Positions 54,550-56,282 of a stretch of 64,000 nucleotides of DNA are shown one piece after another. A program made the position numbers and the translations under genes. This DNA is from Muribaculaceae bacterium. GTDB taxonomy: Bacteria; Bacteroidota; Bacteroidia; Bacteroidales; Muribaculaceae. Location: assembly GCA_017621845.1 (NCBI GenBank), contig JAGASI010000020.1:1-64000 (forward strand), written 5' to 3'. Each line of letters starts with the position of its first letter. The first letter of the stretch is position 1. The notes beneath the pieces are model-generated. The model saw only the letters and a list, made by a program, of their open reading frames with translations, did not search any database and was not told the DNA's origin.

Positions 54550-55200
54550 TTATATGTTTGTAAGAACTTTTCGGATTGCTGTGGGGAATTCTCCGACTGA
54601 TTCCAGTATCACGTCTTCGGACAAAATGCCGTTGGCATACATCGGGGCATAGTTCTGTGCGACCATTGTCATTACCTGGTAGCGATGCCTCACTAATGAG
54701 TCTTCGTTCAGGTTGAACAGTCTTATTGTTGCTCTACCACGACTCTTGTCTCCTTTTTCTTCATCCAGGGATATATATTCGCCGGTCATGAGGTCTATAT
54801 CGAGAAAGTCTTCAGGGTTATCGCGGTCGGGCTTTAATAATAGTGTGTAATCACCGGTGTTCTTGTTGTAATCGGCTTCGGTCATATTGCTGTCTTTATA
54901 GCATGCGCCGTAAGGGTCCGCTCTCTTGTTTGTTTTTCGCCATGCTACAAATATATTGTCATAACTAAATATGAGGTTTGGATTTAGACTTTGTTTTACA
55001 TAGTGGTCTATATGCACACTGTTTTTGTCCGGGTTGGGAAGACGCAGTTCGGTATAAGCACACATCCGGCCTTGTATTACCCATAAATGTCGGGTTAAGT
55101 CGGGTTTGACCGGGGATACATCATTCCAACTGTCCGGTCGGTGCTTTTTAAGGAAATCAATATAAAAATCAGGTGCTTCTCCTTTTGATATTTTATGCAT
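54550..55200 (-). CDS. HNH nuclease-like protein, PtuB/TIGR02646 type (Septu-like)
   Basis: This 216-residue protein resembles the HNH nucleases paired with PtuA-like ATPases. The core HIDHY (63-67) and the following FSYDNIFVAWRKTNKR (79-94) fit the HNH layout. The zinc knuckle usual in the family is degenerate: CAYT (47-50) instead of CxxC, and RKTN where CN is usual. The nuclease may therefore be metal-dependent through His/Asp only, or inactive. It overlaps the ATPase gene by 8 nt, so the two proteins are made together. An antiphage role is inference from family and pairing. Confidence 0.7.
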   Translation of the reverse strand: MHKISKGEAPDFYIDFLKKHRPDSWNDVSPVKPDLTRHLWVIQGRMCAYTELRLPNPDKNSVHIDHYVKQSLNPNLIFSYDNIFVAWRKTNKRADPYGACYKDSNMTEADYNKNTGDYTLLLKPDRDNPEDFLDIDLMTGEYISLDEEKGDKSRGRATIRLFNLNEDSLVRHRYQVMTMVAQNYAPMYANGILSEDVILESVGEFPTAIRKVLTNI

Positions 55201-56245
55201 TTTTACGCTCCTGTCTCGTTATATCCATTCTTATCATCACCAAATCGGCATCAGAAAATCCGATAATATTCTCCAACGGCTCCATCACTTCCCGGGCTTC
55301 TTCAAGTCGGCCATCCCTTACCAGTTCACGTAAATGTTCCAGTTTTTTTAATATCTCGGGGTCACGTTGTCCCTTGACATGCTGTATTGAAGCGAGCACG
55401 TCGGCAACAGTCCATCCGTAGGGCCCTTCCTCGACATAATCGGCATGAGTGTTGCCCTCGGAATCCCTTGTAAGTACGCGCAATTCCTCGCTCTTGGCCG
55501 ACCCTATAATCTGTGGGCTATGTGTAGCTATAATGACTTGACAATCTTCTTCATTGAGTTCCACTACACGGCGAATCAACCCAAGGAAATGGCTTTGCCA
55601 TGCCGGATGCAATGAGTCTTCAGGCTCGTCAAACATCACCAAGGCGCCCTTTACTTTTTCAAGGAATAGCGGAAGCACTTTGGCAATGAGTTTACGTTCT
55701 CCCGATGATAGTGATTCCGGCCCGAATGTGTTCCCATCGCTATTTTCAAACAGCACCTTCTTGTCTCTGGTAATGCGGTGAAATTTAACGGCCATTCCGA
55801 GTTGACCGAATATTTCATCAAAGACTCGTTTGATATTATTATAGGCATCATTGGCGGCAAGACCGTCATCATAAACGACCTTGTCTACGTATGCCAAAAG
55901 AGCTTGCGATAAATCCAAGGCCACCTTGTCGGGCGATTGCTCGGCTGTAAAATAAATAACTTTATTAACATTGCAAACACCACCGTTGTGGAATAGTTTT
56001 TGATCACTAAATGTACAACGTTGAATTACGTCATTGCGCTCGACATCAATAAATCCATTGGCCGGCCCTAAAAAAGGCTTGGTCACTATGGTTTTAAGGA
56101 AATTAAGCAATGTTGTTTTGCCCGAGCCGTTCACACCGGCTATTACAGTTATGGCGAGAGGCTTCGGAGACTCTGGAGGTGTAAATCTTACATCAAGGTT
56201 TTTGAGTCCCTGATAATTATCTAAATGTAGCGCTTGTATTTTCAT
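55193..56245 (-). CDS. AAA/SMC-like ATPase, PtuA type (Septu-like)
   Basis: This ATPase of about 350 residues, from MKIQALHLDNYQGLKNL, belongs to the RecF/SMC-like overcoming-lysogenization-type class. Walker A is GVNGSGKTT at 37-45, the ABC-like signature LSSGER at 179-184, Walker B ALVMFDEPEDSLHP near 201-214, and the switch His in IIATHSPQ. The coiled-coil arm is short, as in PtuA. The start fits the promoter, which would place transcription start within 1-3 nt of the ATG. The downstream HNH gene overlaps. Candidate defence system; the target is unknown. Confidence 0.78.
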   Translation of the reverse strand: MKIQALHLDNYQGLKNLDVRFTPPESPKPLAITVIAGVNGSGKTTLLNFLKTIVTKPFLGPANGFIDVERNDVIQRCTFSDQKLFHNGGVCNVNKVIYFTAEQSPDKVALDLSQALLAYVDKVVYDDGLAANDAYNNIKRVFDEIFGQLGMAVKFHRITRDKKVLFENSDGNTFGPESLSSGERKLIAKVLPLFLEKVKGALVMFDEPEDSLHPAWQSHFLGLIRRVVELNEEDCQVIIATHSPQIIGSAKSEELRVLTRDSEGNTHADYVEEGPYGWTVADVLASIQHVKGQRDPEILKKLEHLRELVRDGRLEEAREVMEPLENIIGFSDADLVMIRMDITRQERKNA

Positions 56246-56250
56246 AATCA

Positions 56251-56282
56251 CAAATGTATAAAAATATCTGATACTACGCAAA
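56251..56282 (-). promoter_or_regulatory. Promoter of the Septu-like pair
   Basis: On the minus strand TTTG (56279-56282) and TACATTTG (56251-56258) are separated by 20 nt, an exact consensus. Transcription should begin within a few nt of the start codon at 56245, so the message would be leaderless or nearly so. Confidence 0.78.

What the first reader, a model, noticed from the sequence alone, without database searches (positions are those of the whole stretch)
54550..56282. Septu-like defence pair with a degenerate HNH zinc knuckle
A PtuA-type ATPase and a PtuB/TIGR02646-type HNH protein overlap by 8 nt and sit between housekeeping units, as defence islands often do. The HNH core HIDHY is kept, but the usual zinc-knuckle cysteines are replaced (CAYT, RKTN). 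This may be a divergent subtype with altered nuclease chemistry.
Basis: partly seen in the sequence, partly recalled or inferred. Interest (0 to 1): 0.6.

Follow-up and report, generated by a model that had tools for sequence, protein, structure and literature searches.

The report
Septu pair lacking its zinc knuckle
Two overlapping bacterial genes encode a probable Septu-type phage defence pair, and the nuclease belongs to a branch in which the usual four-cysteine zinc site has been replaced by another conserved motif while the catalytic residues are kept.

Summary
ptuA (350 aa, ATG start) and ptuB (216 aa) overlap by 8 nt on the minus strand. Both match PADLOC PtuA/PtuB profiles, and AlphaFold models match solved PtuA and PtuB chains over nearly their full length. 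The pair stands alone: no reverse transcriptase beside it, and 0 of 6 flanking proteins match a defence profile, so it is not in a defence island.

The zinc-knuckle change is real, but "degenerate" is the wrong word. In 17 relatives of this branch, position 50 (second Cys) is Thr in 16 and Ser in one; position 98 (fourth Cys) is Gly in 16 and Ser in one. Cys47 is kept in 16 of 17, and H63, D65, H66, N82, K102 and D103 in 17 of 17. No substitute set of metal ligands is conserved. This is a fixed alternative motif with the catalytic core intact.

Most likely it is a Septu-type ATP-gated abortive-infection nuclease; whether it cuts tRNA or DNA is open. Altered nuclease chemistry is not supported.

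Side finding: related pairs with a long PtuA sit directly behind hsdM-hsdS in 5 of 5 readable loci, with no hsdR seen.

The parts
55193..56245 (-). ptuA, 350-aa SMC/ABC-head-like ATPase
   Evidence: PADLOC PtuA 1.1e-69; AF2 model to Septu PtuA 8eea_D Z 23.9 over 335 residues
54550..55200 (-). ptuB, 216-aa HNH protein of the TIGR02646 / PtuB kind
   Evidence: PADLOC PtuB 1.4e-37; TIGR02646 over cut-off; AF2 model to 9vh1_F Z 21.1
55193..55200 (-). 8-nt overlap of ptuA and ptuB
   Evidence: frame coordinates
56114..56137 (-). PtuA Walker A, residues 37-44 (K43 is the lysine)
   Evidence: G37, N39, G40, G42, K43 invariant in 15 of 15 rows
55697..55711 (-). PtuA ABC signature LSSGE, residues 179-183
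   Evidence: L179, S180, G182, E183 invariant in 15 of 15 rows
55619..55642 (-). PtuA Walker B, residues 202-209
   Evidence: D206, E207, P208 invariant in 15 of 15 rows
55514..55525 (-). PtuA His-switch THSP, residues 241-244
   Evidence: invariant in 15 of 15 rows
55051..55062 (-). PtuB first half-knuckle CAYT, residues 47-50 (second Cys replaced by Thr)
   Evidence: position 50 is T in 16 and S in 1 of 17 rows
55003..55014 (-). PtuB HIDH, residues 63-66; D65 and H66 are the likely catalytic pair
   Evidence: H63, D65, H66 in 17 of 17 rows; spacing of 16 to N82 as H75-N91 in Septu EcB88 (PMC13096335)
54955..54957 (-). PtuB N82, the Asn of the HNH core
   Evidence: 17 of 17 rows
54940..54942 (-). 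PtuB W87, the place of the third Cys
   Evidence: Cys in 4 of 17 rows of the branch
54892..54909 (-). PtuB GACYKD, residues 98-103 (G98 is the place of the fourth Cys)
   Evidence: position 98 is G in 16 and S in 1 of 17 rows; K102 and D103 in 17 of 17

Best explanation
This is a stand-alone Septu-type two-gene phage defence cassette. PtuA is a short SMC/ABC-head ATPase that, by analogy with solved PtuAB complexes, holds PtuB in an ATP-controlled assembly. On infection PtuB is released or switched on, its HNH site (D65-H66-N82) cuts nucleic acid, and phage growth stops by abortive infection. In this branch of PtuB the four-Cys zinc knuckle next to the HNH core has been replaced by a fixed alternative motif (C-[AG]-[YF]-[TS]-E ... 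[GS]-[AG]-x-x-K-D), so the fold is probably held without a structural zinc while the catalytic site is unchanged. Shown here: the genes, homology, linkage, intact motifs and the branch-wide motif. Inferred: ATP gating, defence, zinc-independence, substrate. For the substrate I lean slightly towards tRNA, because the PtuB model is closest to retron-Eco7 PtuB, but nicked DNA is nearly as likely.
For: Profiles: PADLOC PtuA 1.1e-69 and PtuB 1.4e-37; TIGR02646 over its cut-off. Folds: PtuB model to retron-Eco7 PtuB 9vh1_F Z 21.1, rmsd 2.8, 193 aligned, and to E. coli Septu PtuB 8eea_G Z 18.6, rmsd 3.3, 202 aligned, well above the next fold class (Cas9 HNH domains, Z 5.6 and below); PtuA model to Septu PtuA 8eea_D Z 23.9, rmsd 4.7, 335 of 350 residues. 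PtuA motifs invariant in 15 of 15 rows. Linkage 19 of 19. Motif: position 50 T 16 / S 1, position 98 G 16 / S 1, catalytic-core positions 17 of 17; apart from 47, 63 and 66 the only column with Cys or His in half or more of the rows is 166 (His 12 of 17). In 82 rows the third Cys is lost in 20 of the 26 that lack the second and in 0 of the 56 that keep it. A Bacteroides thetaiotaomicron plasmid pair has the same motif. [quoted passage not shown]
Against: No close homologue exists to measure selection; the nearest is 35% identical. Curated equivalog cut-offs are not reached: NF041760 89.7 of 500 and NF041761 87.3 of 150 bits; these are built for the retron Ec78 proteins. PtuA is about 100 residues shorter than E. 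coli Septu PtuA between Walker A and Walker B, so its assembly may differ. Six relatives have a broken or shortened ptuB beside a full-length ptuA frame (L005, L014, L015, L016, L017, L127), so ptuB is sometimes lost or the assemblies hold errors. That the four Cys bind zinc in relatives is general knowledge of HNH proteins; no call tested it and no paper on it was found. Defence was not tested.
Confidence: 0.72

Rival explanations
1. Decaying Septu: the knuckle loss marks a PtuB on its way to a pseudogene, with little or no nuclease activity.
For: Three of four knuckle Cys are gone; several relatives have broken ptuB frames.
Against: The replacement residues are themselves fixed (T/S at 50 and G/S at 98 in 17 of 17 rows) and the catalytic core is invariant; the window frame is intact at 32-36% identity to relatives.
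Confidence: 0.1
2. Retron effector pair acting with an RT and ncRNA encoded elsewhere in the genome.
For: PtuB is nearest to retron-Eco7 PtuB; the genome has two RVT_1 genes.
Against: Both RT genes lie on other contigs; one is a group II intron RT with maturase domain, the other a short RT frame whose best PADLOC match is a generic RT. No RT beside the window pair, and no Rfam RNA near it.
Confidence: 0.05
3. PtuB still binds a structural metal through an altered ligand set (Cys47 plus His63, Cys100 or others).
For: Cys47 is kept in 16 of 17 rows and H63 in 17 of 17; the window has Cys100.
Against: Position 100 is Cys in only 3 of 17 rows, position 87 in 4 of 17; no four-ligand set is conserved.
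Confidence: 0.15
4. A non-defence role, for example repair by an SMC-like ATPase with an HNH nuclease.
For: PtuA resembles SMC and Rad50 heads (Z 17-18.6); the flanks are housekeeping genes.
Against: PtuA chains outscore SMC and Rad50 heads and alone match the C-terminal part among the rows shown; the pair is patchy, 2 of 49 genomes of the genus, unlike a repair gene; relatives lie by hsdM-hsdS or cas7.
Confidence: 0.07

Closest known systems
Septu (PtuA-PtuB), E. coli, structures 8ee4/8ee7/8eea
   Same: Two-gene operon without RT; PtuA model matches 8eea_D over 335 of 350 residues including the C-terminal part beyond the SMC/Rad50-like head; PtuB model matches 8eea_G
   Different: PtuA is about 100 residues shorter between Walker A and B; PtuB has the CAYT/G98 knuckle and is nearer in fold score to retron-Eco7 PtuB. 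The Cys state of 8eea PtuB was not read
Septu EcB88, E. coli (PMC13096335, passages read)
   Same: Stand-alone ptuAB; HNH His-Asn spacing of 16 (H75-N91 there, H66-N82 here)
   Different: Its substrate (tRNA-Tyr variable loop) is known; that of the window pair is not
Retron Ec78/Eco7 effector PtuAB (type I-A retron)
   Same: PtuB among the closest solved chains in sequence and the closest in fold
   Different: No RT gene beside the pair; below both NCBIfam equivalog cut-offs; Ec78 PtuB has CAYC, a third Cys and RCG before YKD
PtuAB behind hsdM-hsdS in Bacteroidales (compare NCBI TIGR04435, restriction system-associated AAA ATPase)
   Same: Same C-x-x-T/S ... G PtuB motif; overlapping ptuA-ptuB
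   Different: Long PtuA (475-631 aa) and HsdM-HsdS upstream; the window pair has neither

Membership tests
Septu | ptuA: ATPase with Walker A, signature, Walker B and His-switch | tested here: met
   invariant in 15 of 15 rows; PADLOC PtuA 1.1e-69
Septu | ptuB: HNH protein of the TIGR02646 / PtuB kind | tested here: met
   TIGR02646 60.6 bits against 52.15; PADLOC PtuB 1.4e-37; fold Z 18.6-21.1 to solved PtuB
Septu | ptuA and ptuB adjacent in one operon | tested here: met
   8-nt overlap; linkage in 19 of 19 rows of the tree clade
Septu | no reverse transcriptase in the operon (separates it from type I-A retrons) | tested here: met
   no RT among frames around the pair; the RT genes found in the genome lie on other contigs
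Septu | PtuA-PtuB oligomer with ATP-controlled nuclease | not testable with these tools
   only single-chain models were made
Septu | protection against phage | not testable with these tools
   needs an experiment
Four-Cys zinc-knuckle HNH as in Ec78 PtuB | C-x2-C before the HNH core and two further Cys after it | tested here: not met
   only Cys47 of the four aligned positions is present; zinc binding itself untested
Retron type I-A (Ec78) effector | RT and msr-msd beside ptuAB | tested here: not met
   no RT beside the pair; Rfam finds only RNase P and a tRNA in the window, which does not exclude an undescribed ncRNA
Retron type I-A (Ec78) effector | NCBIfam equivalog cut-offs NF041760 and NF041761 | tested here: not met
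   89.7 of 500 and 87.3 of 150 bits

The most novel reading that the evidence does not exclude
PtuAB in Bacteroidota forms a branch in which the nuclease dropped its structural zinc through a coordinated replacement of paired knuckle cysteines, and this zinc-free PtuAB has become a plug-in nuclease arm: alone in the window, and docked on HsdM-HsdS in place of HsdR in sister lineages, making a methylation-guided Septu.
Probability: 0.3. Interest if true: 0.6.

Novelty: new variant of a known kind. Interest (0 to 1): 0.38.

Why it matters
It gives a natural test of what the zinc knuckle of PtuB-type HNH nucleases is for: a whole branch keeps the active site and drops the knuckle. It adds a stand-alone Septu in a genus where the pair is rare, and a pair with the same motif sits on a Bacteroides thetaiotaomicron plasmid, an organism with good genetics. 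The link to hsdM-hsdS in sister lineages makes it testable whether PtuAB can replace HsdR as the cutting arm of a methylation-based system.

Tried and rejected
Decay of the nuclease: rejected as the main reading because the replacement motif is itself conserved. Retron membership: rejected on absence of a neighbouring RT and on the equivalog cut-offs. Defence island at the window: not found. Clean empty site: not obtained; DNA downstream of the homoserine dehydrogenase gene differs among the 29 genus relatives examined, and TonB_C, L25 or ptuAB were found in none of them there within 1.5 kb, so only absence of the pair at that place is shown. Viral or phage copies: none found (phages at 1e-5, viral contigs, 17 pattern matches, none confirmed). 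First genome-contig scan with the single protein: 6 pattern matches, none confirmed. Promoter and terminator scan: counts equal to shuffles, uninformative.

Correlated loss on the tree: independent pairs were too few to reach significance (3 pairs on starred branches, median p 0.5), so the coupling of the Cys losses rests on counts, not on a phylogenetically corrected test. One clade for the 17 rows: not rejected (AU p 0.226) but not shown; the 19-row clade has SH-aLRT 95 in the 82-row quick tree and only 69/78 in the careful 33-row tree. In distant rows the fourth Cys column is poorly aligned: of 41 rows with the K-D or K-E anchor, all 17 that lack the second Cys also lack the fourth, but 8 of the 24 that keep the second also show no Cys at the fourth column.

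Rows dropped before the 82-row count: seven duplicate loci (L033, L122-L126, L132) and eight truncated or broken ones (L005, L014, L015, L016, L017, L029, L093, L127). Of the eight, four read T at position 50, three read C and one lacks the stretch. Where a locus gave two rows, the first was used. The set of 16 intact rows was picked because all four columns hold Cys, so its CCCC state is by construction. L129 and L130 are nearly identical and L108 and L109 identical, so rows are not all independent.

Full report
What is there. On the minus strand, ptuA (55193-56245, 350 aa) and ptuB (54550-55200, 216 aa) overlap by 8 nt. Upstream lie genes for homoserine dehydrogenase, a MetX-like acyltransferase and an O-acetylhomoserine sulfhydrylase-like protein; downstream a TonB_C protein, ribosomal L25, peptidyl-tRNA hydrolase and an S4-domain protein (Pfam for homoserine dehydrogenase, TonB_C and L25; the other names are read from the frames by recall). 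None of six flanking proteins matches PADLOC at 1e-5, so this is an isolated cassette, not an island.

Identity. PADLOC: PtuA PDLC00289 1.1e-69, PtuB PDLC00326 1.4e-37. NCBIfam: TIGR02646 60.6 bits over its 52.15 cut-off, but below the Ec78 equivalog cut-offs (89.7 of 500 for PtuA, 87.3 of 150 for PtuB). Solved relatives by sequence: PtuB chains 22bv_F (9.2e-13) and retron Ec78 9vh1_F (1e-11); E. coli Septu PtuA 8ee4 (1.2e-15). AlphaFold2: PtuB pLDDT 91.2, pTM 0.86; PtuA pLDDT 85.3, pTM 0.78. VIA-align: PtuB to 9vh1_F Z 21.1, rmsd 2.8, 193 aligned, 28% identity; to 8eea_G Z 18.6, rmsd 3.3, 202 aligned, 18%. PtuA to 8eea_D Z 23.9, rmsd 4.7, 335 aligned; SMC and Rad50 heads align only up to about residue 290, so the last 60 residues are matched by PtuA chains alone among the rows shown.

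Distribution and linkage. With the window PtuB as query: 2 of 49 genomes of the genus (own included), 5 of 397 of the family, 27 of 393 of the order. With the alignment A1: 28 of 395 of the class and 60 of 395 of the phylum (the sets overlap and include the own genome). Many of the weak hits are distant HNH relatives, not this branch. In the 19 full-length rows of the tree clade that holds the window, 19 of 19 have a PtuA-like frame just upstream on the same strand, overlapping or within 12 nt by frame coordinates. Next to the homoserine dehydrogenase gene, 0 of 29 genus relatives with a readable locus carry the pair.

The knuckle. In Ec78 PtuB the region reads CAYCE, then HIEHF, then SC, then RCGIYKD. 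In the window it reads CAYTE, HIDHY, AW, YGACYKD. Anchored on K102-D103, the four Cys positions are 47, 50, 87 and 98: Cys, Thr, Trp, Gly in the window. Across the 17 full-length rows of the branch: 47 Cys 16 / Gly 1; 50 Thr 16 / Ser 1; 87 Cys 4, others 13; 98 Gly 16 / Ser 1; 99 Ala 15 / Gly 2; H63, D65, H66, N82, K102, D103 17 of 17. The only further column with Cys or His in at least half of the rows is 166 (His 12 of 17). Two relatives in the clade, L007 and L012, keep all four Cys. Across 82 rows the second Cys is missing in 26; the third is missing in 20 of those 26 and in 0 of the 56 that keep the second. The shortest count of changes on the tree is 7 for the second Cys, so similar losses probably happened more than once, although distant rows are less securely aligned. 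A Bacteroides thetaiotaomicron plasmid protein reads CGYTE and FGADFKD.

Reading. The first knuckle keeps one Cys and has a Thr under strong constraint; the fourth Cys is a Gly under strong constraint; the third position drifts. That is the pattern of a knuckle rebuilt without metal, not of decay. The catalytic centre is untouched, so changed chemistry is not expected. H66, not H63, corresponds to the His mutated in Septu EcB88: the spacing to the Asn is 16 residues in both (H75-N91 there, PMC13096335 passages). That the four Cys of relatives bind zinc is recalled knowledge of HNH proteins, not a result of a call.

How it works. [quoted passage not shown] In retron-Eco7, PtuAB depletes tRNA-Tyr, whereas Septu of E. 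coli ATCC25922 is reported to act on nicked DNA (PMC11555353, passages, citing Li et al. 2024, which I could not read). The window PtuB is closer to the Eco7 type, so RNA is a slight favourite. ATP control, oligomer and trigger are inferred by homology.

Side finding. In the sub-branch with long PtuA (475-631 aa) the pair follows hsdM and hsdS directly in 5 of 5 loci with enough upstream DNA (L128, L130, L131, L133; L097, extended as L156); L129 of the same sub-branch was cut short and could not be judged, and L130 and L129 are nearly identical. HsdM and HsdS of L131 and L133 match Pfam N6_Mtase and Methylase_S. A search for the ResIII helicase domain in four of these genomes gave hits elsewhere but none near the hsdM places, and the DNA upstream of hsdM in those four shows no hsdR-like frame by eye (the contig end limits L130). 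NCBI's TIGR04435, restriction system-associated AAA ATPase, matches three of these PtuA at 98-112 bits, under its cut-off of 300, so an association of this kind is partly known to curators. A literature search for HsdM, HsdS, PtuA, PtuAB, TIGR04435 and TIGR02646 listed 10 of 397 papers, of which one holds PtuA together with HsdM, and there HsdM belongs to a PrrC system.

In print. Searches of the held library returned no paper in whose listing or passages a zinc-less PtuB is described; most subscription papers are not held.

Noticed in passing
L128:116-5633, L130:1-5571, L131:111-5633, L133:44-5621, L156:1874-7361: hsdM-hsdS-ptuA-ptuB in one direction, with no hsdR seen nearby: PtuAB may be the cutting arm of a methylation-based system.
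   Followed up: partly
L005, L014, L015/L132, L016, L017, L127: ptuB broken, shortened or missing its HNH stretch beside a full-length ptuA frame; either loss of a costly nuclease or assembly errors in metagenome-derived genomes.
   Followed up: no
L126:5001-8897: A Cas7-family gene (PF05107) about 2.4 kb downstream of a stand-alone ptuAB, so some relatives do sit near other defence genes.
   Followed up: partly
L153:1-6573 (Rhizobium rhizogenes plasmid pC6.5e): ptuAB between a helicase-related protein and a DUF1156 protein, another possible partner setting for PtuAB.
   Followed up: no
L152:1762-3612 (Phocaeicola dorei plasmid): PtuA and PtuB appear fused in one 616-aa protein, downstream of SIR2 and TIR proteins.
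   Followed up: no
L158:5-10001: ptuAB behind a long frame of 1644 aa and another of 465 aa, with an AAA-like frame downstream; names by eye only.
   Followed up: no
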